A stretch of 64,000 nt of DNA from NCBI GenBank assembly GCA_018268675.1, contig JAFDWB010000070.1, positions 1 to 64,000 of the forward strand, read 5' to 3'. A program made the position numbers and the translations under genes. Numbering within the stretch: the stretch's first letter is position 1; every line of letters starts with the position of its first letter. The notes beneath the pieces were generated by a model. The model had not been told where the DNA came from. It saw only the letters and a program-made list of their open reading frames with translations, and ran no database searches. Shown here piece by piece: positions 43,867-57,420 of the stretch. Source of the DNA: Actinomycetota bacterium (GTDB lineage Bacteria > Actinomycetota > Thermoleophilia > Solirubrobacterales > 70-9).

Positions 43867-44727
43867 ATGTCGACCGACTCCTTCTCGGCCCTGAACTCCG
43901 GGGTCGTCCGTCGCGGGCGCGGCCTGCTGATCAAGGTTCCCGAGATCATCGCCTTCTTCTGGATCACGAAGGTGGCGACGACCGCGCTCGGCGAGTCCAC
44001 GTCTGACTTCCTCAACGGCTATCTGGGCCCGGCGATCGCGGTGCCGATCATGTTGGTCGCGCTGGGGTGGGCGCTGCGGCGCCAGTTCCGGGCCGACCGG
44101 TACGAGGCGTGGACGTACTGGGGGGTCGTCGTCATGGTCGCGATCTTCGGCACCTCCGCCGCCGACGCGCTGCACGTCGGGCTAGGCGTGTCCTACCTCC
44201 TGTCGACCGCCTTCTATGTGACCGTCCTGGCGATCGTCTTCCTCGCCTGGCAGCGGAGCGAGGGCACCCTCTCGATCCACTCGATCCGCACCCGCCGCCG
44301 TGAGAAGTTCTACTGGGCGACCGTCCTCGCCACCTTCGCCCTCGGCACCGCCGCCGGCGACATGACCGCGATGTCGCTCAACCTCGGGTTCTTCGGCTCG
44401 ATCTGGCTCTTCGCCGCGCTGATCGCGATCCCGTTCGTCGGCTACCGCTGGTTCGGCATGAACGAGGTGCTCGCCTTCTGGATGGCATACATCCTCACCC
44501 GCCCGCTCGGCGCCTCGGTCGCCGACTGGCTGGCCGTCGAACCGAGCCGCGGCGGCCTCGGGCTCGGCACCGGCGGCGTCAGCCTGATCCTCGCCGCTGC
44601 GGTGATCTTCCTCACCGCCCGCCTGGCGCGGACGAAGATGGACGTGCGGGTCGAGGAGGTCGGCCTCGACGGATCAGACGTGGGCGGGCTCCGGCACGAC
44701 CGCGCCCTCGGCCTCGACCTTGGGTAG
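43867..44727 (+). CDS. COG4705-type membrane protein
   Basis: 286 residues with eight or so helices in two repeats: KVPEIIAFFWITKVATTALGESTSDFL and FYWATVLATFALGTAAGDMTAM match the COG4705 family of uncharacterised membrane-anchored proteins. The repeated WITK/WATV...TALGE/TAAGD acidic motifs look like a paired ion site, but no substrate is known. The 3' end overlaps the convergent ArsR gene by 54 bases, so its last 18 codons run antisense to that gene. Confidence 0.75.
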   Translation: MSTDSFSALNSGVVRRGRGLLIKVPEIIAFFWITKVATTALGESTSDFLNGYLGPAIAVPIMLVALGWALRRQFRADRYEAWTYWGVVVMVAIFGTSAADALHVGLGVSYLLSTAFYVTVLAIVFLAWQRSEGTLSIHSIRTRRREKFYWATVLATFALGTAAGDMTAMSLNLGFFGSIWLFAALIAIPFVGYRWFGMNEVLAFWMAYILTRPLGASVADWLAVEPSRGGLGLGTGGVSLILAAAVIFLTARLARTKMDVRVEEVGLDGSDVGGLRHDRALGLDLG

Positions 44728-45072
44728 AGCCTCCGGCAGCGTGTAGAAGTGCTCGGTGGCGCCGCGCACCGCGCGCTGGCGCACCAGCACGATCAGCCCC
44801 GCCTTGGCGAGCTCGGTGACGTGGTAGTTGGTGTTGCTGAGGGGGATCTGCAGCTCGCGGCTGAGGTCGCTGGGGGAGAGGACCCGACCGCCGTCGATGC
44901 CGAGGATTTCGAGGATCGAGACGCGCAGCGGGTGGGCGGTGGCGCGGGCCAGCCGCTCCCACGCGACCGGGATCGATGCGCCGTTCCGGCGGCTTCCGTT
45001 GGTTGCTTTGCCCGTGCCGGTCATCTCGGCGACCCCGTTTCCGTTTCCGTTCGCCCTGCCCACGAATTCCAC
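44674..45072 (-). CDS. ArsR-like winged-helix regulator
   Basis: 132 residues. A Gly/Asn-rich N-terminus (GRANGNGNG) precedes the HTH domain: ERLARATAHPLRVSILEIL, LSPSDLSRELQIPLSNTNYHVTELAKAGLI and the wing RGATEHFYTL. The Gly/Asn-rich start may be an over-extension; ATG 45024 is an alternative. No metal-binding cysteines. It is divergent from the exported-protein operon, with about 50 bases to its promoter, and might regulate it. Confidence 0.82.
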   Translation of the reverse strand: MEFVGRANGNGNGVAEMTGTGKATNGSRRNGASIPVAWERLARATAHPLRVSILEILGIDGGRVLSPSDLSRELQIPLSNTNYHVTELAKAGLIVLVRQRAVRGATEHFYTLPEALPKVEAEGAVVPEPAHV

Positions 45073-45119
45073 CTACCCGTTTTCCGCTCGTTCGTGCGCA
45101 GCGACGTTACCAAAAATTA

Positions 45120-45180
45120 TTGATCCACGTCCCGAATTTCAGGTAGTCTTGCCTTGGGATGCTCTTCTGGAGGAGAGATG
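45120..45180 (+). promoter_or_regulatory. Promoter and ribosome site before the exported-protein operon
   Basis: TTGATC (45120-45125), an 18-base spacer and TAGTCT (45144-45149) make a vegetative-type promoter with predicted start near 45156. A strong GGAGGAGAG lies at 45169-45177 directly before ATG 45178. That ATG encodes MRRSA, the same first residues as the paralogue at 48128, but is not in frame with the rest of the gene (see the gene entry). Confidence 0.5.
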
Positions 45181-48086
45181 CGTCGTTCGGCGACGCGCGG
45201 ATTGCCCTTCCCGCGATCTGCCTCGCGGTCGCCTTCGCGATCGCGCTCGCGCCGGCGCCCGCTGCCGCCGACACCGCCTCGGTGATCGCCCCCAGCAACC
45301 CGCACGAACCGAAGCTCGACTCTGGCTGGCAGGCGGGCACCTGCAAGCAAGAACCGCCGCTGACCGACACTGAAGCGAGCCATTTCTGCAACGCCAACAG
45401 CGACCCGAGCAAATTCTTCTTCGAAGAAGCCGCCGCCCACCCGAACTTCGGCTTCACCCAGTTCATCGTCGCCCACGGCGCGCTCGAAAAGCCGACCGCC
45501 GAACTCGAGTACGTGCGGGTCGATCTGCCGGTCGGGCTTAGCGTCAACCCGGGGGCGACGCCGCGCTGCCCGATCGCGGTCTTCGAAGCCGGCGCGGCGG
45601 GCTGCGAAAGCTACGGCGCCAAGGTCGGCGAAAGCGGCGTCACCGCCTGGGCGGCGCTCACCTTGTTCCCGCCGATGTCCGGCCTGACCGTCGTCCCCGT
45701 CTACAACCTCGTGCCGAAGCAGGGGCAGGCGGCGCGCTTCGGCCTCGAACTGCTCGGCAACGAAGTCTTCCTCGAAGGCGACATCGAATCCGCCGGCGAC
45801 TATCACGAGGGCTTCACGATCAAAGTGCCGCGCGCGCTGCCGATCCAACTGCCGCTGGAACTGCTCGAAGGCATGGTCTACAAGGACCGCCTCGTCTTCG
45901 ACGGTCAGGCTCACGATCCGACGACCGGCAACGGCACCTTCCTGACCACTCCGAGCACCTGCCACGGCCGCGCCTTCCTCGAATCCGGGAGCGAATACTC
46001 GACCCTGCTGAAAGCCGCCTCCTACAAGGAAATCGAAGCGGGGGAGAGCTTCCCGGCCGGCGCCGGCGCAGCGCTCGAGTCGCCGATCCCGCCCGGCACC
46101 TCGCCGAAACGCTGCGACACGATCCCCTACGAACCGGCGCTCGCCGTCGCCCCCGGCACCGCGGAAACTAACGCGCCCGCCCCTGCCCAGACGACCGTCG
46201 CCGTCCCCCAGCTGCAGAACCCGCAGGGCCAGGACGACTCGACCACCCGCGAAGCGCAGGTGACGCTGCCGCCGGGGATGGGTCTCAACCCCTCCGCCGC
46301 CGCGGCGCCGAACGACCTGAAGGCCTGCGCCGACAGCCAGTTCGTCCTCCATTCGACCGCGCCGATCGCCTGCCCGGCGCAATCCGTGATCGGCACCGCG
46401 ACGATCACCGCGGCGGCACTCCCGGAAGGCAACCTCGAAGGGAACGTCTACCTCGGCAGCCAGGAGAGCGCCGACCCGACCTCCGGTGAGGAGTACCGGA
46501 TCTTCATCGACGCCGCCTCCGCCCGCTACGGGATCGACGTGCGCCTGCTCGGCCACGTCTTCGCCGACCCGCTGACCGGGCAGCTGACGACGAGGATCGC
46601 CGAAGTCCCGCAGGTGCCGTTCACCAGCTTCACGCTCGACTTCGTCGGCGGCGAGCGCGCCGTGCTCAGCAGCCCGCCGACCTGCGGCCCGAACCAGAGC
46701 CTCGCCCGGATGACCCCGTGGTCGGGCAACCCCGCCGCGACGCCAGCCGCCGATTTCGTCCTCCACGCCACCCCGGGCGGAGGGCCCTGCGCAGCCACCC
46801 TGGCCGCGCGGCCCTTCGCCCCCTCCTTCGCCGCCGCGCCGGAGAGCACCAAGGCGGGCGCCTACAGCCCGCTCCACGTCACGATCGCCCGCGGCAACGG
46901 CAGTCAGGAGCTGAAAGCCGCCTCGGTCGCCCTGGCGCCGGGGATGATCGCCAAGCTCGCCGGGGTCCCGTACTGCCCGGAAGGCGCGATCGCGGCCGCC
47001 GCGGCCGCCGCCGGCGCGACCGAGACCGCCTCGCCGAGCTGCCCGGCGCAGAGCCAGGTCGGCACCGCGACGATCCAGGCGGGCACCGGCCCGACGCCCC
47101 TCACGATCGCGGGCAAGGCCTTCCTCTCGGGCCCCTACCACGGGGCTCCTCTCTCCCTGGCGGTCGTCACTCCGGCCACGGCCGGGCCGTTCGATCTCGG
47201 CACGGTCGTGGTGCGGGTGGCGCTGTTCGTCGACCCGGAAACGGCGCGGGTGACCGCGGTCTCCGACCCGATCCCCGACGTCTTCGGCGGGGCGCAATTG
47301 AGCATCCGCTCGGTCGCGCTCGACTTCGGGCGCAAGGAATTCACGCTCAACCCGACCAGTTGCGCCGCGCTGGGCAGCGACGCGACGCTCTCCGGCGGCG
47401 GCGCCGACCCCGCCGTGTCGTCGGCGTGGAGCTCGTTCAGCGCCTCGGCCCCGTTTCAGACCTCCGCCTGCCAGGCGCTCGAATTCGCGCCGAAGCTGGT
47501 TACCCGCTTCCTCGGCGGCAGGAAGCAGACCCGGCGCGCCGGCCACCCGAAGCTGCGGGCGACGCTGACGGCGCGGCCCGGCGACGCCAACATCGCTCGC
47601 GCGACGCTGACGATGCCGCGCTCGGAGCTGATCGACCAGGGCCACATCAAGACGATCTGCACGCGGGTCCAGCTCGCCGCCCACGAGTGTCCGCCGGGCT
47701 CGGTCTACGGCTACGCCCGCGCCGAATCGCCGCTGCTGGAAAACCCGCTGGCCGGGCCGGTCTACCTCGTCTCCTCGAATCACGTCCTGCCCGATCTACT
47801 TGCCGACCTCCAGGGTCAGGTGGAGATCCGACTCCACGGCGTGGTCAGATCGGTGAAGGGCGGCCGCATCCGCACGACTTTCTCGCCGGTCCCCGACGTC
47901 CCCGTCAGCAAGTTCACGCTGACGATGCAAGGCGGCAAGAAGGGCCTGATCCAGAACTCGCGCAACCTCTGCGCTCATAAGTACTTCTCGAAGCTCAAGC
48001 TTCTCGCCCAGAACGGCAAGCGCCTGGTGAAGAAGAAGCTGCCGCTCGGCGTTGCCGGCTGTCGGGGCAACAAAGGGCGACGATAG
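45159..48086 (+). CDS. Exported four-module repeat protein, paralogue 1
   Basis: 975 residues as read from ATG 45159. A signal peptide (LPAICLAVAFAIALAPAPAAA) is followed by four copies of one module, at about 55-320, 322-550, 551-775 and 776-970. Each has a Val-x-Leu-Pro-x-Gly-type strand with a Cys (VDLPVGLSVNPGATPRC, 121-137; VALAPGMIAKLAGVPYC, 590-606), then CPxxSxxG (405, 628, 844) and a VYL-type strand. It ends in AQNGK, a Cys and a basic tail. No named domain recognised; beta-rich surface protein inferred. The ribosome site points to ATG 45178 in another frame, so a frameshift in the signal peptide (real or sequencing) is possible. Confidence 0.75.
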   Translation: MLFWRRDASFGDARIALPAICLAVAFAIALAPAPAAADTASVIAPSNPHEPKLDSGWQAGTCKQEPPLTDTEASHFCNANSDPSKFFFEEAAAHPNFGFTQFIVAHGALEKPTAELEYVRVDLPVGLSVNPGATPRCPIAVFEAGAAGCESYGAKVGESGVTAWAALTLFPPMSGLTVVPVYNLVPKQGQAARFGLELLGNEVFLEGDIESAGDYHEGFTIKVPRALPIQLPLELLEGMVYKDRLVFDGQAHDPTTGNGTFLTTPSTCHGRAFLESGSEYSTLLKAASYKEIEAGESFPAGAGAALESPIPPGTSPKRCDTIPYEPALAVAPGTAETNAPAPAQTTVAVPQLQNPQGQDDSTTREAQVTLPPGMGLNPSAAAAPNDLKACADSQFVLHSTAPIACPAQSVIGTATITAAALPEGNLEGNVYLGSQESADPTSGEEYRIFIDAASARYGIDVRLLGHVFADPLTGQLTTRIAEVPQVPFTSFTLDFVGGERAVLSSPPTCGPNQSLARMTPWSGNPAATPAADFVLHATPGGGPCAATLAARPFAPSFAAAPESTKAGAYSPLHVTIARGNGSQELKAASVALAPGMIAKLAGVPYCPEGAIAAAAAAAGATETASPSCPAQSQVGTATIQAGTGPTPLTIAGKAFLSGPYHGAPLSLAVVTPATAGPFDLGTVVVRVALFVDPETARVTAVSDPIPDVFGGAQLSIRSVALDFGRKEFTLNPTSCAALGSDATLSGGGADPAVSSAWSSFSASAPFQTSACQALEFAPKLVTRFLGGRKQTRRAGHPKLRATLTARPGDANIARATLTMPRSELIDQGHIKTICTRVQLAAHECPPGSVYGYARAESPLLENPLAGPVYLVSSNHVLPDLLADLQGQVEIRLHGVVRSVKGGRIRTTFSPVPDVPVSKFTLTMQGGKKGLIQNSRNLCAHKYFSKLKLLAQNGKRLVKKKLPLGVAGCRGNKGRR

Positions 48087-48127
48087 TTGTTTTCCGAGAA
48101 CGGATTGATGGGTAAGGAGACGCCCCG

Positions 48128-50878
48128 ATGAGGAGGAGTGCGCGGAACGCCGCAGTCATCACCACCGCGACGGCGCTGGCGGCGCTGCTGCTTGCCGCCT
48201 TCGGGGCGGCCTCGGCGTCGGCGATCGGGATCGGCACCTGGGAAGCCGGGACGTGCACGGTGCCGGAATGCACCTACAAAAGCGCCGAAAGCGCCTTCTT
48301 TTCCCAGGCCGCCGGCCACCCTCCGGATGGCGTCACGGACTTCTCGGTCAACGTCGAAGGTGGGGACCAGGTCAAGCGGGTGAAGGTGGAATTGCCGGAG
48401 GGACTGAACGTCAACCCGGTGGCCGCGCCGCAGTGCCCGCTCGAAACCTTCAAAAATGACGAAGCGCAGTGCGCGGCGCTCGGCAGTCAGGTTGGGGTCA
48501 GCGAAGTCACGTCGAGCCTTCTCCCGCTCCCACTCGAATTTCCCGTCTACGACCTCGTCCCGAACAACGGCGAACCGGCTCTCTTCGCGTTCCACGTGAC
48601 GACGCCGGTCCTCCCCCTGATCAGCGAGTACGTCTACCTCGAAACCGCGATCGAATGGGCAGGCGATTATCACGAGTCGTTCTTCATCAACAACATCGCC
48701 GCCTTCCCGCCGCTGGGGCGGAACCGCCTGGTGTTCGACGGACAGGCGGGCGGCTCGTTCCTCACCCTGCCGAGCCCCTGCAACGGCAACACGACGAGCA
48801 TCCTCGAACTCGAAAGCCAGGGTGGGGCGACGGCGGGGCCGCAGCCGACGACCCCGCCGGTGCCGATCGTCGGCTGCGGCGCGGTGCCGTTCGCGCCGAG
48901 CGTCGCCGCCGCGGCGAGCGGGCCGACCGACTCCTCGAGCACCGTCTCCGTCTCGCTGAACGTCCCCCAGCACGCGGGCGCCAAAGAGATCAACACCTCG
49001 ACGGTGAAGTCGGCGAACGTGACCCTGCCCGCCGGCACCGGCCTCAACCCGGCAACCGCGCCGGGCCTCAAGTTCTGCCCCGACACGGCCTTCCCCCTGC
49101 ACTCGAAGGCGCCGGTCGCCTGCGCGCCGGAATCGCAGATCGGCACGATCCAGATCGAAGCGCCGGAGCTGCCCGCGGGTTCGCTCACCGGGCCCGTCTA
49201 CCTCGCCGAACAGAAGAGCCGCGACCCGCTCTCGGGTCAGGAGTACCGGATCTTCTTCGACGCCGAATCGAGCCGTTACGGGGTCCAGGTCCGTGAGGAA
49301 GGCAAGGTCAGGGCGAACCCGACCACGGGCCAGTTGAGCGCCGAATTCAGCGGCCTGCCGCAGGTCGCCTTCTCCTCGGCGACGCTCACCTTCGGCCCGA
49401 CCGCCAGGCACGCGATCCCGGTGCTGAGCAGCCCGCCCCTCTGCAGTCAGACGGCGACCTCGAGCGCGGTGCCGTGGTCGACCGGCACGCCGACCTCGAC
49501 CGGGACGACGGAGCTGAAGATGGCCGCGGCGCCCGGCGGCGGGCCGTGCGCGAAGACGATGGCCGAACGGCCGTTCAGCCCTGCCGTCAGCGCCAAGCCG
49601 GTCAGCTCCGCGGCGCTCGCCTACACGCCGTTCCAGTTGCAGGTCAGCCGCAACGAAGGTCAGCAGGAGATCAAAGGCTTCCACCTGACCCTGCCGCCCG
49701 GGGCGACGGCGAACATCTCGAAGGTCCCCTACTGCGAACCGAACGAATTCAGCGCCGCGGCGGGACTCTCCGGCCTCGAGGAGCAGAAGAGCTGGAGCTG
49801 CCGCGCGCAGAGCCAAATCGGCACCGCGACGATCATGGCCGGCACCGGTCAGACGCCGTTGCAGATCGACGGCCGGGTCTACCTCTCCGGTCCATATAAG
49901 GGGGCGCCGCTCTCGGCGATCGTGATCACGCCGGCCGTGGCCGGGCCGTTCGACCTCGGCAACGTGGTCGTCCAGGCGCCGCTCAACCTAAACCCGGAAT
50001 CCGGCCAGATCGAAGCGAGCGCCGAAATCCCTGACGTCTTCGGCGGCGCCAAGCTCGACATCCGCTCGATCTTCGTGAACCTGAATCGCAAGGAATTCAC
50101 GCTCAACGGGACGAACTGCAACCACAACGCGACCACCGGCTGGATCTCCGGCGGCGGCGCCGACCCGACCAACCTGGCCGCCTGGTCCTCCAGCCCGGTC
50201 AACGTCCCCTTCCAGGGGAGCGGCTGTGAATCGCTCGCCTTCAAGCCCGGTCTCAAGATCCGCCTCTTCGGCCAGACCCGCCGCGCGAAGCACCCGAAAC
50301 TCAAGGCGACGCTGACCGCCAAGGAAGGCCAGGCCAACGTGGCGCTCGCCTCGGTGGCGCTGCCGCACTCGATCTTCCTCGATCAGTCGAGCCTGGGCAC
50401 CGTCTGCACCCGGCCGCAGTTCGCCGCCGGCCGGTGCCCGGCGAAATCGCGCTACGGCTTCGCCCGCGCGTGGACCCCGCTGCTCGCCCACCCGCTCGAA
50501 GGCCCCGTCTACCTGCGCTCCTCCGACAACACCCTGCCCGACCTGGTCGCCGACCTGAAAGGCCAGGTCACCATCGTCCTCGACGGCCGGATCGACAGTT
50601 TCAAGGGCGGCATCCGCACCACCTTCGCGAGCGTCCCCGATCTGCCGGTCAGCAAGTTCGTCCTCACCCTGCCGGGCGGCAGGCACGGCCTCCTCCAGGC
50701 CTCGACCAACCTCTGCGCGAAGCCCGTGCGCGGCATCATCCGCCTGACCGGGCAGAACGGCAAGAAGGCGAACGGTCACCCCATCATCCAGACCCCGTGC
50801 AAGAGCAGAAAGCACGGCAAGCGGCACAAGGGCAAGAAGAAGCACAAGACCGCCCACACCCAGAAGTCCAAGCGCTGA
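48128..50878 (+). CDS. Exported four-module repeat protein, paralogue 2
   Basis: 916 residues. Signal peptide 1-32 (MRRSARNAAVITTATALAAL to ASASA). Modules repeat the pattern of the previous gene: VELPEGLNVNPVAAPQC, VTLPAGTGLNPATAPG, LTLPPGATANISKVPYC and VALPHSIFLDQSSLGTVC, each followed by a C-x-x-x-S-x-x-G step and a VYL strand. The third module contains SGPYKGAPLSAIVITPAVAG, nearly the same as in both paralogues. The C-terminus is GQNGK, then Cys and about 25 mostly Lys/Arg/His residues. ATG 48128 follows AAGGAG by 9 bases; only 41 bases separate it from the preceding stop, so one operon. Confidence 0.82.
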   Translation: MRRSARNAAVITTATALAALLLAAFGAASASAIGIGTWEAGTCTVPECTYKSAESAFFSQAAGHPPDGVTDFSVNVEGGDQVKRVKVELPEGLNVNPVAAPQCPLETFKNDEAQCAALGSQVGVSEVTSSLLPLPLEFPVYDLVPNNGEPALFAFHVTTPVLPLISEYVYLETAIEWAGDYHESFFINNIAAFPPLGRNRLVFDGQAGGSFLTLPSPCNGNTTSILELESQGGATAGPQPTTPPVPIVGCGAVPFAPSVAAAASGPTDSSSTVSVSLNVPQHAGAKEINTSTVKSANVTLPAGTGLNPATAPGLKFCPDTAFPLHSKAPVACAPESQIGTIQIEAPELPAGSLTGPVYLAEQKSRDPLSGQEYRIFFDAESSRYGVQVREEGKVRANPTTGQLSAEFSGLPQVAFSSATLTFGPTARHAIPVLSSPPLCSQTATSSAVPWSTGTPTSTGTTELKMAAAPGGGPCAKTMAERPFSPAVSAKPVSSAALAYTPFQLQVSRNEGQQEIKGFHLTLPPGATANISKVPYCEPNEFSAAAGLSGLEEQKSWSCRAQSQIGTATIMAGTGQTPLQIDGRVYLSGPYKGAPLSAIVITPAVAGPFDLGNVVVQAPLNLNPESGQIEASAEIPDVFGGAKLDIRSIFVNLNRKEFTLNGTNCNHNATTGWISGGGADPTNLAAWSSSPVNVPFQGSGCESLAFKPGLKIRLFGQTRRAKHPKLKATLTAKEGQANVALASVALPHSIFLDQSSLGTVCTRPQFAAGRCPAKSRYGFARAWTPLLAHPLEGPVYLRSSDNTLPDLVADLKGQVTIVLDGRIDSFKGGIRTTFASVPDLPVSKFVLTLPGGRHGLLQASTNLCAKPVRGIIRLTGQNGKKANGHPIIQTPCKSRKHGKRHKGKKKHKTAHTQKSKR

Positions 50879-50938
50879 ACGCCCGCTTCGCCTGCCTGTC
50901 TACCCACTACTTATTCCCGATCCAAACCCGCCGACCGG

Positions 50939-50971
50939 TTGACTTGACCCCACCGCTCTGACCGCTAGTGT
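50939..50971 (+). promoter_or_regulatory. Internal promoter before the exported hydrolase
   Basis: Overlapping TTGACT/TTGACC (50939-50949) and TAGTGT (50966-50971), 16 bases after the second hexamer, form a recognisable promoter in a 176-base gap. The -10 resembles that of the first gene (TAGTCT). GGAGGAGGG at 51042-51050 is the ribosome site of the downstream gene. Confidence 0.55.
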
Positions 50972-51054
50972 CTGTGGCGGGAAAGGGATGTGGTACCGCC
51001 ACGCAGGGGCGGCGTTATCGCTTTTGGGGAATTGCGTTAACGGAGGAGGGACAG

Positions 51055-53409
51055 ATGGTGAGGGGTTCGGGGCTCACGCTTCCACGCAGGGGATTCGTCG
51101 CGGCCTTGGTGGTCGCGGTGGCATTGGTAGTCGCGCCGTCGGCGCAGGCCGCGTTCACCTCTGTCTACGGGGGGGCGGCCCACTGCACTGTGGAACCGTC
51201 TCACGGCAACATCCGTGCCTGCAGCGGCTTCACGCTCACCTGGGACCACGCCACGAAAATCGACGTCAACGTGTTCCTGCCGCCGGAAACGGGTGGCACC
51301 GAAGGCCCCTATCCGCTGATCGGCGACTTCCACGGTTGGGGCGGCTCGAAGTTGGGGCTGACCACTGTGGAACCGGCCGAAGGACTGACCTTCCAGCAGA
51401 AAGACCCCCGCATCCAGCACTGGGCCGAAGAGGGGTACGCGGTCTTCAGCATGAGCGATCGCGGCTGGGGCCTTTCGTGCGGCAAATTCGACCCTCAGAT
51501 CGCGGAACCGGTCTGTGCCCAGGGGTACAACCACCTGATGGACGATCGCTACGAAGTCCGCGACGCCCAGTACCTGATCTCTGTGCTCGCCGACGAAGGC
51601 GTTGCCCAGCCGATGAAGATCGGCGTCACCGGAGCCTCCTACGGTGGCGGCATCTCGGTCGCGCTGGCGGCACTCCGTAACCGCGAAATGCTCCCCAACG
51701 GCGAACTGGTCCCCTGGACCAGCCCCGAAGGAGAAGAAATGGAAATCGCGGCCGCGGCCCCGCAGTGGGCGTGGACCGACATCGCCTACGCGCTGGCGCC
51801 GAACGGTCGCAACCTCGACTACGTGACCGAATCCTCGTATCGCGGCCCGTCCGGAAAAGCCCCGGTCGGGGTGATGAAGCTGAGCTACACCGAAGCCCTG
51901 TACCAGAGTGGGCTGGCGCTGAGCAACTACAACGAATCGAACCCGGAAGCCGACATCCCCGGCTGGCGCCTCCGGCTTCTCGCCGGCGAGCCCTACAGCG
52001 ACCCGGGTGTCAACGCGATGATCAAACAGCTCACCGCCTATCACTCGGCCTTCTACATCAACCACGCCGAGGCGCCCTCGCCGATGCTGCTCCAGAGTGG
52101 GTGGAACGACGACCTCTTCCCGGTCGACGAAGTGCTGCGCCTCTACCAGCGGACCCGGGCGCAGTACCCGAGCGATCCGATCTCACTCTTCCTCGCCGAC
52201 TACGGTCACTCGCGCAGCCAGAACAAGGCCGCGGATGTCGGCCGGTTCAACGAACGGCTGGAAGCGTGGTTCGCCCACTACCTGAAGGGCGAAGGCGCGT
52301 CACCGAGCTCGAGCGTCGAGGCCCTCACCACCACCTGCCCGAACTCGGCAGCCTCCGAAGGGCCGTACACCGCCGGGAATTGGAGCTCGCTCGCACCGGG
52401 TGAAGTCCGCCTCCAGTCGAACCAGCCGCAGACGATCGAACACGGCACTGTCGCCGAAGAAGAAGTCCCGACCCTGTCGGGCAAATTCTTCGACCCGATC
52501 ATCGGTCCGAAAGTGGGAAAAAATGTGTGCTCTTCGGTTCCCGCTGAAGCGCAGCCCCGCGTCGCCAACTACAGCCTCGCCCCGGCTCCGGCGGGTGGCT
52601 TCACCCTGATGGGGTCGCCGACGATCGTCGCCAAGGTCCAGTCGCCGACCCCCAACTCGGAGATCGCGGCGCGCCTCGTCGACGTTGCGCCGGAAGGGAC
52701 CGAGACCCTGATCGCCCGCGGGCTCTACCGACCGACCGGGGGCAGTCAGGAAATGGTCTTCCAACTGCACCCGCAGGGCTATCACTTCGCTGCGGGACAC
52801 GTGGCGAAACTCGAACTGCTGCCCTCTGACATGCCGTACGGGCGCTTCTCCAACCTGCAGGCCAACGTCACGGTCTCGAGCCTGGAACTGCGCCTGCCGG
52901 TGATGGAGCAGCCCGGCTCACTCGGTGGTCTGGTCCAGACCCCGGCGCCGAAAGTAGTCCCCGCCGGCTACCAGCTGGCGGCGGAATACCAGGAAAAGCC
53001 GTCCGGTGGCGGTGGCGGGGGGACCCCGCCCACCACCCCGCCGCCCGCGACGATCAAGATCGGCGCCGCCGGGCTGACCGGAAAGCTCACCGCGAACAGC
53101 AAGGCCCTCATGGTGCCGTTGCGATGCACCGGCGAAGGTGCCTGCTCGGGTCAGGTCTCGGTGACCGTGAAGGCCTCGAGCGGGAAGGGCCGCACGACGC
53201 TGGCCAAGGGCAAATACTCGATCGCGTCCGGAGCGAACCTGACCGCGCGGGTCCCGTTGACCAAGGCCGGCGCGAAGATCGTCCAGGGCCGCCTCGAAAT
53301 CAAGGGGAAGCGCTCGAAGACCCTCTCCGGCGTCCTGCAGCTGAACGACGCCGGCAGGCCGACGACCCTGACGTTGAATCGCCCGGTCCACCTGACGGGA
53401 GGTAAGTGA
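51055..53409 (+). CDS. Exported S15/CocE-type alpha/beta-hydrolase
   Basis: 784 residues. Signal peptide about 1-32 (FVAALVVAVALVVAPSAQA). The alpha/beta-hydrolase domain has nucleophile Ser195 in GASYGGG, acid Asp352 or Asp353 in SGWNDDLFP and His385 in DYGHSRS, the arrangement of X-Pro dipeptidyl-peptidase/cocaine-esterase-like enzymes. A jelly-roll-like domain follows (about 450-640), then a Gly/Pro/Thr linker (SGGGGGGTPPTTPPP) and a small beta domain with a Cys pair (RCTGEGACSG). It likely cleaves an ester or peptide outside the cell. Placed between two paralogous repeat proteins; a link to their processing or anchoring is inference. Confidence 0.85.
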   Translation: MVRGSGLTLPRRGFVAALVVAVALVVAPSAQAAFTSVYGGAAHCTVEPSHGNIRACSGFTLTWDHATKIDVNVFLPPETGGTEGPYPLIGDFHGWGGSKLGLTTVEPAEGLTFQQKDPRIQHWAEEGYAVFSMSDRGWGLSCGKFDPQIAEPVCAQGYNHLMDDRYEVRDAQYLISVLADEGVAQPMKIGVTGASYGGGISVALAALRNREMLPNGELVPWTSPEGEEMEIAAAAPQWAWTDIAYALAPNGRNLDYVTESSYRGPSGKAPVGVMKLSYTEALYQSGLALSNYNESNPEADIPGWRLRLLAGEPYSDPGVNAMIKQLTAYHSAFYINHAEAPSPMLLQSGWNDDLFPVDEVLRLYQRTRAQYPSDPISLFLADYGHSRSQNKAADVGRFNERLEAWFAHYLKGEGASPSSSVEALTTTCPNSAASEGPYTAGNWSSLAPGEVRLQSNQPQTIEHGTVAEEEVPTLSGKFFDPIIGPKVGKNVCSSVPAEAQPRVANYSLAPAPAGGFTLMGSPTIVAKVQSPTPNSEIAARLVDVAPEGTETLIARGLYRPTGGSQEMVFQLHPQGYHFAAGHVAKLELLPSDMPYGRFSNLQANVTVSSLELRLPVMEQPGSLGGLVQTPAPKVVPAGYQLAAEYQEKPSGGGGGGTPPTTPPPATIKIGAAGLTGKLTANSKALMVPLRCTGEGACSGQVSVTVKASSGKGRTTLAKGKYSIASGANLTARVPLTKAGAKIVQGRLEIKGKRSKTLSGVLQLNDAGRPTTLTLNRPVHLTGGK

Positions 53410-53452
53410 CATGCGCCGGAAACCGACCGCGTCGAACGGAGGAGGACTGATT

Positions 53453-56329
53453 GTGAGGCGTCTACTGCTCGTGATCGCCGTGGGAATCCTCGGCGCCCTG
53501 TTCGTGGCGCCGGCCGCGCAGGGTGCGGTCGGGGTCCAAAAATGGGAATCGCTGACCTGTAAGGAAAACCTCGATCTCCCCTTGATCACCAAACCCGCGG
53601 ACTTCGGTGTGCCGGAAATCAAACCCGAAAGTGCACTTCCGGCGCCGGCGGGCCAGTGCAAGGGCTCGACCCCCGAAAAGCTCTACACCCAGGCGGGCGG
53701 CCACCCGAACTACGGGATCACCGACTTCAAGATCGACACCTATCCGTCGCTCTTCGGGCTCGGCGGCTTCCCGACGACGTTCCTCAAAGACATCGTCGTC
53801 GACACGCCTGAAGGATTGAGTGTGAACCCGGAAGCGCTTCCGCAGTGTGAAGTCGAACAGCTCGAGAAACAGGCATGTCCGCCGTCGTCCTTCGTCGGCA
53901 TCAACTATCTGACGGTCGCGGCTCAGACGCCGACCGGCTCGCCTCCCAAATGCACGGCCCCGGTGCCGAACGAATGCCTTCAGGCCAGGGTCGCCCTGCC
54001 GGTGTACAACCTGGTGCCGTTCCAGGGAGTGCCCTCGATGGTCGGCTTCCTGACCGAATCGGGCCCGACCTTCGTCGTCGGCTCGTTGAGTCCGGTCGAC
54101 CAACACGTCACCTTCACGATCAGTGACATCCACCCGCCGTCGTTGACCAGTCCGCCGATCATCGAGTCGCGCCTGGTCTTCTTCAGCGCGAAGGAAACGA
54201 ACGTCTTCAACCCGGCGGCGAACGGGACCTATCTGACCATGCCGAGCAACTGCGCGGGTGGACAGGTCTCGAACCTCCGCCTGGACACGCAAGGGCCGCC
54301 CTACGAAGAAGGCGAAGCGTCGAGCACCGAAGCGAGCTACACGACGCCCACCGGCGCCACCGGTTGCGAAAACGTTCCCTTCAACCCGGAAATCGCCGTC
54401 ACCGCGGATGGCCCGAAAGCGGTCGACAGCCCGGAACCGACGACCGTCGACGTCGGCATCCCGTGGGACCCGTCGGCGCCGATCGCGAACTCCTACCTGA
54501 AGGTGGCGAAGGTGACGCTGCCGGAAGGGATGGGGATCAACCCGTCGTCAGGCAACGGGCTCCAGGCCTGCACGGACGCACAGTTCCACTACCACACGAA
54601 TGCCGCGGTGGAATGCCCGGCGGCGTCGAAGATCGGTTCGGTCGACATCGAAACGCCGTCGCTGCCGAACGGCTCGATCACCGGCGAAGTGTTCGTCGGG
54701 CAGCCGCTCAAGAACGGCCTTGGTGCATTCGAAAGCGGTGAACAGTTCCGCATCTTCATCTACGCGTTCTCGAAACGCTACGGCGTGAACGTGCGGCTGG
54801 AGGGGAAGGTCTTCCCGAACGCGACGACCGGCCGGCTCACCGCGGAAGTGCCGGAAAACCCGCAGGCGACCTTCCGCCACTTCCGCCTGCACTTCTTCGG
54901 CGGCGACAACGGCGTCCTCACCTCGCCCTCGATCTGCGGTCCCAACACGACGACGACCGAATTCACCCCGTGGTCGGGCAACCCCGACCACAACACGCCG
55001 TCGACGACCACGCCGATGAGCACCGATCCGGGCGGCGGCAGCTGTCCGACCAGCCTCGGCGCCCGCAAGTTCGCGCCGAGCTACAGCGCCGCGACCGAAT
55101 CGACCGCGGCGGGCAAGTACAGCCCGTTCAAGGTCCACATCGGACGCGGTGACGGGCAGCAGGAGATCAAAGCGGTGAACGTGACCCTGCCGAAGGGCCT
55201 GGTCGCGAAGCTCGCCGGGATCCCGTACTGCGGGGAAGCCGAACTGGCCGCCGCGGCGGCAAGCGGCGGCAGCGCCCAGATGGCCCACCCGAGCTGCCCC
55301 TCGAACAGCGCGATCGGCCACGTGACGACGGCCGCCGGGACCGGCAACACGCCGCTCAGCCTGCCGGGCACGGCGTACCTCGCCGGTCCATACAAGGGGG
55401 CGCCGCTCTCGATGGCGGTGATCACCCCGGCGGTCGCCGGTCCGTTCGACCTCGGCACCGTGGTCGTCCGGGTGGCGCTGAACGTCAACCCGCTGACCGC
55501 CCAGGTCAACGCGGTCTCCAACCCGATCCCGAACGTGTTCGGCGGGGTCAAGCTCGACGTCCGCTCGATCGACATCAGCGTCGACCGCAGCAAGTTCATG
55601 CTGAATCCGACCAACTGCGCGGCGGGCGCCACGGCGGGGACGCTGAACGGCGGCGGCTCGAACCCGGCGAACGCGGCGAGCTGGAGCAGCTACGCGGTCT
55701 CGTCGCCGTTCCAGGCCACCGGCTGCAACAAGCTCGGCTTCAAGCCGACGTTCAACGCGCGGATCTCAGGCCCGACCACGCGGGCGCAGAACCCGCAGAT
55801 CCGGGTCGTCGTCAGGGCCCGCCAGGGCGACGCCAACATCGCCCGTACGGCGCTCAACCTGCCGAGCTCGCTGTTCCTCGACCAGGGTCACATCAAGACG
55901 ATCTGCACGAGAGTCCAGCTGGCGGCGCAGCAATGCCCGCAGAACTCGATCTACGGGCACGCCGAAGCGAGCAGCCCGCTGCTGCAGCAGACGTTGAAGG
56001 GGCCGGTCTACCTGGTGTCCTCGAAGCACAAGCTCCCGGACCTCCTGGCGAACCTCAGAGGCCAGATCAACATCCAGCTGGACGGCGTGATCAGCTCGAA
56101 ACACGGCGGGCTGAAGACGGTGTTCAACAACACTCCGGACGTCCCGCTGAAGTCGTTCGTCCTCACCATGAAGGGCGGCAAGAAAAGCCTCCTGCAGAAC
56201 TCGACCAATCTCTGCAAGAGCCCACAGCTGGCGATCCTCAACATGAAAGGCCAGAACGGGAAGACGGTGAAGAACAACAAGCTCCGTCTCAACATCGCGT
56301 CTTGCGGGAGCAAGAAGAACAAGAAGTAG
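53453..56329 (+). CDS. Exported four-module repeat protein, paralogue 3
   Basis: About 958 residues from GTG 53453, chosen because GGAGGAGG (53438-53445) is 7 bases upstream and a signal peptide (LLLVIAVGILGALFVAPAAQGA) follows; ATG 53411 would add 14 residues. The four modules carry VDTPEGLSVNPEALPQC, VTLPEGMGINPSSGNG, VTLPKGLVAKLAGIPYC and LNLPSSLFLDQGHIKTIC, with CPxxSxxG and VYL steps. The third module has SLPGTAYLAGPYKGAPLSMA. It ends GQNGKTVKNN, Cys and SKKNKK. The 43-base gap after the hydrolase indicates a common transcript. Confidence 0.82.
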   Translation: MRRLLLVIAVGILGALFVAPAAQGAVGVQKWESLTCKENLDLPLITKPADFGVPEIKPESALPAPAGQCKGSTPEKLYTQAGGHPNYGITDFKIDTYPSLFGLGGFPTTFLKDIVVDTPEGLSVNPEALPQCEVEQLEKQACPPSSFVGINYLTVAAQTPTGSPPKCTAPVPNECLQARVALPVYNLVPFQGVPSMVGFLTESGPTFVVGSLSPVDQHVTFTISDIHPPSLTSPPIIESRLVFFSAKETNVFNPAANGTYLTMPSNCAGGQVSNLRLDTQGPPYEEGEASSTEASYTTPTGATGCENVPFNPEIAVTADGPKAVDSPEPTTVDVGIPWDPSAPIANSYLKVAKVTLPEGMGINPSSGNGLQACTDAQFHYHTNAAVECPAASKIGSVDIETPSLPNGSITGEVFVGQPLKNGLGAFESGEQFRIFIYAFSKRYGVNVRLEGKVFPNATTGRLTAEVPENPQATFRHFRLHFFGGDNGVLTSPSICGPNTTTTEFTPWSGNPDHNTPSTTTPMSTDPGGGSCPTSLGARKFAPSYSAATESTAAGKYSPFKVHIGRGDGQQEIKAVNVTLPKGLVAKLAGIPYCGEAELAAAAASGGSAQMAHPSCPSNSAIGHVTTAAGTGNTPLSLPGTAYLAGPYKGAPLSMAVITPAVAGPFDLGTVVVRVALNVNPLTAQVNAVSNPIPNVFGGVKLDVRSIDISVDRSKFMLNPTNCAAGATAGTLNGGGSNPANAASWSSYAVSSPFQATGCNKLGFKPTFNARISGPTTRAQNPQIRVVVRARQGDANIARTALNLPSSLFLDQGHIKTICTRVQLAAQQCPQNSIYGHAEASSPLLQQTLKGPVYLVSSKHKLPDLLANLRGQINIQLDGVISSKHGGLKTVFNNTPDVPLKSFVLTMKGGKKSLLQNSTNLCKSPQLAILNMKGQNGKTVKNNKLRLNIASCGSKKNKK

Positions 56330-56385: not shown

Positions 56386-57420
56386 GTGCGTCCTTCCGTA
56401 TCAGTCCTGATCGTCGCCTGGAACTCGGGGCCCGAGCTGCGCCGCATCGTGCCGCCACTGCTCGCCGAGCTGCAGGGCGGTGACGAGCTGATCGTGGTCG
56501 ACAACGACTCGCCCGACGACTCCGCCGCCGTGGTCGCCGAGCTGGCCCCGCGGGCGCGGGTCGTGACGATGGGGCGCAACCGCGGCTTCGCGGGCGGCGC
56601 CAACGTCGGCGCCGGCGCCGCGACCGGGGACCTGCTGGTGATCCTCAACCCGGACGCGGTGCCGCGGCCAGGCTGGGGGGAGGCGATCCGCCGGCCCTGG
56701 CTCGAGGGGCGGGGCTGGTCGGCCTGGCAGGGGCTGGTGGCCGCGGGCGACGGGACGACGATCAACTCGGCCGGCAACCCGGTCCACTTCACCGGCATCG
56801 TCTGGGCGGGGCGGCACGGGGAGCCGCTCGCGGCGGCGCCGGGGCCGGGGGAGGTGACCGCGCTCTCGGGCGCCTGTCTGGCGGTGCCGCTCGAGGTCTG
56901 GCGCCGCCACGGCGGCTTCGCCGAGCGGTTCTTCATGTACCACGAGGACGTCGACCTCTCGCTGCGCCTGCGGCTGGCGGGGGAGACGGTCGGGATCGAG
57001 CCGACCGCGGTCGTCGCCCACGACTATGAGTTCACCGCCTCGGCCGGGAACAAGTGGCGCTGGCTGGAGCGCAACCGGCTGGCGACCTTGGTGCGCCTCT
57101 GGCCGGGCCCGCTGCTCCTCCTGCTCGCCCCGGCGCTGCTGGCGACCGAGGCAGCCCTGCTGCTCGCCGCCGTCGCGGGCGACTGGGGTGGCCAGAAGCT
57201 CCGCGCGAACGCCGAAGTCCTCGCCTGGCTCCCGCGCCTCCTCGCCGAGCGCCGCGCGATCCGCCGCGAACGGAGGATCTCCGCCGCCGACTTCGCCGCC
57301 GCCCTGACCCCCGACCTCGACTCGCCCTTCATCCCGGCCATCGCCCGCTCCGCCCCGGTGCGCCTGGCGCTGCGCACCTACTGGCGCTTGGTGCTCGTCC
57401 TCCTCGGCGGCCGCGGGTAG
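56386..57420 (+). CDS. Family 2 glycosyltransferase with C-terminal membrane segment
   Basis: 344 residues. GT-A fold: VSVLIVAWNSGPELRRIVPPLL, the nucleotide Asp in LIVVDNDSPDDSA, NRGFAGGANVGA, the DxD-like ILNPDAVPRPG and the acceptor-site FMYHEDVDLSLRLRLAG. This is the WbbL/rhamnosyltransferase-like pattern. A hydrophobic segment (PLLLLLAPALLATEAALLLAAVAG) suggests membrane attachment. Donor and acceptor sugars cannot be predicted. Glu codons here are almost all GAG, unlike the adjacent exported genes. Confidence 0.88.
   Translation: MRPSVSVLIVAWNSGPELRRIVPPLLAELQGGDELIVVDNDSPDDSAAVVAELAPRARVVTMGRNRGFAGGANVGAGAATGDLLVILNPDAVPRPGWGEAIRRPWLEGRGWSAWQGLVAAGDGTTINSAGNPVHFTGIVWAGRHGEPLAAAPGPGEVTALSGACLAVPLEVWRRHGGFAERFFMYHEDVDLSLRLRLAGETVGIEPTAVVAHDYEFTASAGNKWRWLERNRLATLVRLWPGPLLLLLAPALLATEAALLLAAVAGDWGGQKLRANAEVLAWLPRLLAERRAIRRERRISAADFAAALTPDLDSPFIPAIARSAPVRLALRTYWRLVLVLLGGRG

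What the first reader, a model, noticed from the sequence alone, without database searches (positions are those of the whole stretch)
45159..56329. Undescribed exported protein family built of four copies of one Cys-containing module, with a partner hydrolase
Three paralogues of about 916-975 residues each contain four modules with the same order: a V-x-L-P-x-G strand ending in Cys, CPxxSxxG, then a G-x-V-Y-L strand. Modules 3 and 4 are the most conserved (GPYxGAPLS, AGPFDLG, IPDVFGGA, DQGHIKTIC). I recognise no named domain. An exported S15-type serine hydrolase is encoded between copies 2 and 3. The operon could make a surface layer or matrix with its own processing enzyme.
Basis: partly seen in the sequence, partly recalled or inferred. 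Interest (0 to 1): 0.75.

Follow-up and report, generated by a model that had tools for sequence, protein, structure and literature searches.

The report
Capped, module-repeat exported proteins of Solirubrobacterales
These are exported proteins, found so far in one order of soil bacteria, built as a start cap, a repeatable pair of disulfide-clamped modules and an end cap; some genomes carry dozens of copies or versions of over 7,000 residues, and they are probably surface rods or adhesins, though nobody has tested this.

Summary
Three exported paralogues (975, 916 and 972 aa) each carry four homologous modules, and no Pfam or NCBIfam family matches them.

First, the four modules are not equivalent. 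Relatives follow m1-(m2-m3)n-m4 with n = 0, 1, 9, 11, 13 and 15 (up to 7,201 aa), so the m2-m3 pair is the unit of expansion and m1 and m4 behave as caps. Second, most modules have exactly four cysteines, with even totals (18, 18, 20) in the three mature proteins. AlphaFold2 confidently predicts beta-sandwich modules whose core resembles YcnI, BslA and MSCRAMM/pilin domains at near-background scores. Third, the family was found only in this order (124 of 232 genomes), with at least 33 copies in one 3.3-Mb genome. Most copies away from the window's locus directly follow, and usually overlap, a gene for an exported propeller/FN3-like protein.

The S15 hydrolase is not a core partner: it sits beside the trio only in one subclade, and relatives occur in genomes without detected modules. 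The conserved neighbours are a divergent HTH regulator and a GT2 glycosyltransferase.

Best reading: lineage-specific surface rods or adhesins. Function, localisation and anchoring are inferred, not shown.

The parts
45159..48086 (+). M1: exported protein, 975 aa; modules m1 ~45414-46121, m2 ~46122-46808, m3 ~46809-47477, m4 ~47478-48083
   Evidence: ORF; orthologous clade, support 100; 18 Cys in the mature protein
48128..50878 (+). M2: exported protein, 916 aa; modules m1 ~48293-48883, m2 ~48884-49567, m3 ~49568-50233, m4 ~50234-50875
   Evidence: ORF; orthologous clade, support 100; 18 Cys
53411..56329 (+). M3: exported protein, 972 aa; modules m1 53678-54376, m2 54377-55066, m3 55067-55732, m4 55733-56326
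   Evidence: ORF; modules homologous; AlphaFold2 pLDDT 88.3, pTM 0.78; 20 Cys
51055..53409 (+). H: exported S15/CocE-NonD-type serine hydrolase; the listed ORF starts at 50968 but the likely start is ATG 51055. A clade-limited neighbour, not a core part
   Evidence: PF02129 46.4 bits, PepX_C 25.7 bits; present or absent across syntenic loci
56386..57420 (+). GT2 glycosyltransferase, next to M3 in 8 of 9 trio loci read past M3
   Evidence: PF00535 2.7e-18; synteny, L021 being the exception
44674..45072 (-). Divergent ArsR/HTH_20-type regulator, conserved beside M1 and beside two single-M loci
   Evidence: PF12840 9e-11; synteny
45107..45148 (.). Conserved promoter/operator-like element TTACC-AAAAAT-TTGA...GGGTAG between HTH and M1
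   Evidence: Aligned in 10 loci
50990..51054 (+). Conserved leader (GCAGGGGCGGCGTT...GGAGGAGG) before H; it precedes M3 directly in H-less genomes
   Evidence: no Rfam match

Best explanation
The three proteins are members of a Solirubrobacterales family of exported rods with the architecture signal peptide, cap module m1, repeatable pair (m2-m3)n, cap module m4, basic tail. Shown: the architecture, the four conserved Cys per module, the confident predicted all-beta model, the restriction to this order in the genomes searched, and the two genomic settings (trio locus; coupled pairs with an exported propeller/FN3-like protein N). Inferred: two disulfides per module (C1-C2, C3-C4) make a stiff chain outside the cell. 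The basic C-terminal tail holds it to anionic envelope polysaccharide. The number of m2-m3 pairs sets the reach. Exposed module surfaces, or the N partner, bind a ligand or a neighbouring chain. In short, a structural or adhesive cell-surface protein, with the window trio being the n = 1 form at a conserved, probably regulated locus.
For: Internal repeats. Architecture over all fetched ORFs: m1-m4 in 4 proteins, m1-m2-m3-m4 in 75 complete ORFs, n = 11 and 15, n = 9 and 13 (each has one m3 slot scored m1). Cys: exactly 4 in 125/132 m2, 112/115 m3 and 89/94 m4; m1 always even; six m2 modules lack both C3 and C4; 16 Cys invariant or nearly so over 49 proteins. AlphaFold2: full length pLDDT 88.3, m2 alone pLDDT 88.4, pTM 0.86; structural neighbours include YcnI, BslA, MSCRAMM and pilin domains. 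Distribution. N-M coupling: 28 junctions, 26 overlapping, 14 by exactly 4 nt; 13 of 14 M genes sampled in G280. GT2 beside 8 of 9 trios read past M3. Giant genes inside Wzx/Wzy-type polysaccharide clusters. Last 40 residues net +4 to +18 in 65 proteins.
Against: No anchor motif or known adhesive domain was found, so surface attachment is inferred from export, tail charge and gene context. Structural scores (Z 8-9; best Foldseek E for m2 about 1e-3) are barely above what unrelated models give. The Wzx/Wzy context applies to the giant forms; the window itself has one GT2.
Confidence: 0.5

Rival explanations
1. Surface layer or matrix with its own hydrolase: the three M proteins form an array and H trims or cross-links it.
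For: H lies between M2 and M3 and its stop is one base before the M3 start; it is an intact S15-type gene under constraint, dN/dS 0.24.
Against: H is missing from syntenic trios L023, L027, L029, L030 and L031; H relatives abound in the family, also where the module search found nothing; H sits between the M3 leader and M3, as expected of an insertion. No S-layer anchor domain in Pfam.
Confidence: 0.12
2. Soluble exported binding proteins that capture nutrients or polymers for exported enzymes, with N as a second binding module.
For: No anchor found; coupling to a propeller/FN3-like protein, folds common in ligand binding; large paralogue repertoire.
Against: Capped repeat growth to 32 modules suits reach or structure better than capture; no uptake system is conserved beside the trio.
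Confidence: 0.2
3. A diversified recognition repertoire (cell contact, kin or phage receptor-like) based on coupled N-M pairs.
For: At least 33 M genes in one 3.3-Mb genome, 13 of 14 sampled with N directly upstream; N-coupled M proteins are highly divergent.
Against: Hypervariation, inversion or cassette exchange was not tested; the trio locus has no N.
Confidence: 0.13

Closest known systems
Fibrillar adhesins (PMC8286594)
   Same: Long single chains of tandem beta modules, exported
   Different: No known adhesive Pfam domain and no sortase or membrane anchor seen; alternating m2-m3 unit between dedicated caps
Periscope Proteins (PMC9704523)
   Same: Repeat number varies between homologues; rod-like stalk proposed
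   Different: Repeats are diverged (median identity 0.38-0.48), whereas Periscope repeats are highly identical
DUF1775 / YcnI (PMC8424229)
   Same: Best structural neighbour of m2 (Z 8.9, 2.6-2.7 A, 118 residues) and m3 (Z 9.1, 2.8 A, 118 residues)
   Different: No Pfam match; modules are internal, so the N-terminal His of the copper site cannot exist; about half of m2 lies outside the aligned core
BslA and YweA of Bacillus
   Same: Beta-sandwich neighbours of m2 (Z 8.2 and 8.5); BslA is a biofilm surface protein (own knowledge)
   Different: Single domain, no sequence match, no shared module layout
MSCRAMM and pilin Ig-like domains (ACE, CNA, RrgB and others)
   Same: Beta-sandwich surface modules (Z about 6-8)
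   Different: Near-background scores; no sequence match; two predicted disulfides per module here
CocE/NonD and S15 hydrolases (for H only)
   Same: PF02129 and PepX_C matches
   Different: Below the NCBIfam CocE_NonD cut-off (42.4 of 66.3 bits)

Membership tests
Fibrillar adhesin | Multiple stalk-like domains in tandem in one chain | tested here: met
   4 to 32 homologous modules per chain; stalk function not tested
Fibrillar adhesin | At least one known adhesive domain | tested here: not met
   No adhesive Pfam family at E <= 0.01 in 49 members
Fibrillar adhesin | Located at the cell surface | not testable with these tools
   Signal peptide visible; no sortase motif or hydrophobic tail seen in the C-termini
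Periscope Protein | Highly identical tandem repeats | tested here: not met
   m2 and m3 copies within giants 0.26-0.73 identical, medians 0.38-0.48
Periscope Protein | Repeat number varies within a population | not tested
   Only between-species variation was seen
DUF1775 / YcnI | Pfam DUF1775 match | tested here: not met
   No match
DUF1775 / YcnI | N-terminal His in the copper site | tested here: not met
   Modules are internal to the chain; no His among the invariant or nearly invariant residues of m2
DUF1775 / YcnI | Fold | tested here: inconclusive
   Z 8.9-9.1 over 118 residues, near background
S-layer protein | SLH, CWB2 or other S-layer anchor domain | tested here: not met
   No Pfam or NCBIfam family
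S-layer protein | Two-dimensional lattice and high abundance | not testable with these tools
   Needs microscopy and proteomics
S15/CocE hydrolase (H) | Peptidase_S15 and PepX_C profile match over cut-off | tested here: met
   46.4 bits (cut-off 23) and 25.7 bits (cut-off 22.5)
S15/CocE hydrolase (H) | Catalytic Ser/Asp/His in place | tested here: inconclusive
   GASYGG motif is in the sequence; Asp and His not mapped on a structure

The most novel reading that the evidence does not exclude
The coupled N-M pairs are a new two-protein surface system of Solirubrobacterales: an exported propeller/FN3-like protein made together with a capped, length-variable rod, amplified to dozens of diverged pairs per genome as a recognition or attachment repertoire.
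Probability: 0.2. Interest if true: 0.8.

Novelty: new variant of a known kind. Interest (0 to 1): 0.6.

Why it matters
An undescribed family occurs in more than half of the searched genomes of this order, with at least 33 genes in one 3.3-Mb genome and proteins of up to 7,201 residues. The m1-(m2-m3)n-m4 rule is simple and testable, and it gives the family a defined domain pair to name, model and solve. If the surface reading is right, it describes a main part of the envelope of a little-studied bacterial order.

Tried and rejected
Hydrolase as obligate partner: rejected from synteny and from its wide distribution. Known domain: no Pfam, NCBIfam or PDB sequence match; the phmmer hits of M1 to designed SAKe propellers did not return with the 49-row profile and are read as chance. 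Pfam M_domain of GW182 (E 0.0067, below its cut-off) rejected. Viral origin: one IMG/VR contig matched (L175), read as host sequence in a viral set, not followed. Structured RNA in the leader: no Rfam match. Literature: six searches on the lineage and on surface, giant or hypothetical proteins were read as result lists only; none showed a description of this family. Two more gave the comparison papers. An earlier count said GT2 is in 7 of 7 trio loci; the correct count, with the window and L021, is 8 of 9. The PDB fold searches do not list every family; absence there is not used as evidence. One genome search with a giant fragment added little.

Full report
Observation. The second and third proteins are 50% and 46% identical to the first, and orthologous pairs are under purifying selection, dN/dS 0.21-0.43. 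No Pfam or NCBIfam family covers them, nor does any member of a 49-sequence alignment match a Pfam family convincingly in the modules. A profile of the 49 found no PDB sequence at E <= 1.

Architecture. In relatives the modules are ordered m1-(m2-m3)n-m4. I found n = 0 (four proteins, 491-662 aa), n = 1 (75 distinct complete ORFs), n = 11 (5,601 aa) and n = 15 (7,201 aa), then n = 9 and 13 (where one m3 slot in each protein scored best as m1). G234 shows at least four pairs in an ORF cut by the contig end. The m2 copies within one giant are 26-73% identical, medians 40-45%; m3 copies 27-63%, medians 38-48%; m2 against m3 25-27%. So the pair is the unit of growth, and the repeats are old.

Cysteines. 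Over 49 proteins 16 Cys positions are invariant or nearly so, four per module. Single modules have exactly four Cys in 125 of 132 m2, 112 of 115 m3 and 89 of 94 m4; m1 has 4, 6 or 8. Six m2 modules lack C3 and C4 together. The mature window proteins have 18, 18 and 20 Cys (the one Cys in the signal region of M1 is left out). I infer C1-C2 and C3-C4 disulfides.

Fold. AlphaFold2 gave pLDDT 88.3 and pTM 0.78 for M3 and 88.4 and 0.86 for its m2 alone; strands dominate. The m2 model's best structural neighbours are YcnI (Z 8.9), YweA (8.5) and BslA (8.2), then MSCRAMM and pilin domains near 7; about 118 of 227 residues align with YcnI. Foldseek's best E for m2 is 1.2e-3. These are near-background scores, so I claim a beta-sandwich core and no family membership.

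Distribution. Within the order 124 of 232 genomes and 33 of 54 genera match. In 149 genomes of the class all 13 positives belong to the order, and in 396 of the phylum all 6 do. Few candidates per genome were scored, so these are lower bounds. The window's genome has seven paralogues. In G280 I counted 33 separate strong m2 matches in 3.3 Mb.

Two genomic settings. Setting one is the window's locus: divergent HTH, M1, M2, (H), M3, GT2, SDR, CcmE, CcmF, largely syntenic in other genomes; the two single-M versions (L032, L052) lack GT2. M1 and M2 are each a fully supported clade; M3 forms a clade together with some single-M proteins. A promoter-like element between HTH and M1 aligns in ten loci. 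Setting two is N-M pairs: M follows an exported protein with propeller- and FN3-like Pfam matches, with 26 of 28 junctions overlapping and 14 by exactly 4 nt. In G280, 13 of 14 sampled M genes have N directly upstream.

Hydrolase. H is an S15-type gene. It lies beside M3 in the window, L020, L021, L022 and L024 but not in L023, L027, L029, L030 or L031. In L023 the leader that precedes H in the window leads straight into M3. H relatives are found in 40 of 50 genomes of the family, including G059, where the module search found nothing. H is therefore an optional insertion in the trio.

Polysaccharide context. GT2 sits next to M3 in 8 of 9 trio loci read past M3; L021 is the exception. The giants of G127 and G130 have glycosyltransferases and Wzx- and Wzy-type genes around them; Pfam was run on the G130 neighbours. 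The last 40 residues carry a net charge of +4 to +18 (median +11) in 65 proteins.

Interpretation. The anatomy supports a disulfide-clamped extracellular chain whose length is set by n. That it is a stiff rod, that it attaches to anionic surface glycan through the basic tail, and that its task is adhesive or structural, are inferences. Rivals are a surface layer with a processing hydrolase, soluble binding proteins, and a recognition repertoire of N-M pairs.

Comparison. Fibrillar adhesins are defined by stalk repeats plus an adhesive domain (PMC8286594); the first is met, the second is not. Periscope Proteins need highly identical repeats (PMC9704523); not met. YcnI/DUF1775 binds copper through an N-terminal His (PMC8424229), which internal modules cannot supply. 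The family is best filed as a new variant of exported multi-domain surface-type proteins.

Noticed in passing
G130:C7 ~253700-275305 and G127:C7 8168-24973: Single ORFs of 7,201 and 5,601 aa made of 32 and 24 modules, within polysaccharide gene clusters.
   Followed up: yes
L012-L015 and L034-L054: Exported ~700-1,500 aa N proteins (NHL, PD40 and FN3-like matches), mostly overlapping the start of the M gene that follows.
   Followed up: partly
window 45107-45148: Element TTACC-AAAAAT-TTGA...GGGTAG between the HTH gene and M1, conserved in ten loci.
   Followed up: partly
window 50990-51054: Conserved GC-rich leader before H or M3, with no Rfam match.
   Followed up: partly
L027 and L030, upstream of M3: Repeated GTGTCAC/GTGACAC-like motifs that could be operators.
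   Followed up: no
window 43867-44727: DUF347 membrane protein that also matches the bacteriorhodopsin family weakly (E 8.5e-5, below its cut-off).
   Followed up: no
G127:C3 ~388574-395380: Long ORF (2,268 aa) near two multi-module proteins, with a repeated Ig-like-looking segment.
   Followed up: no
L175 (IMGVR_UViG_3300043481_000001, contig end): A four-module relative at the end of a contig in a viral collection, probably host DNA.
   Followed up: no
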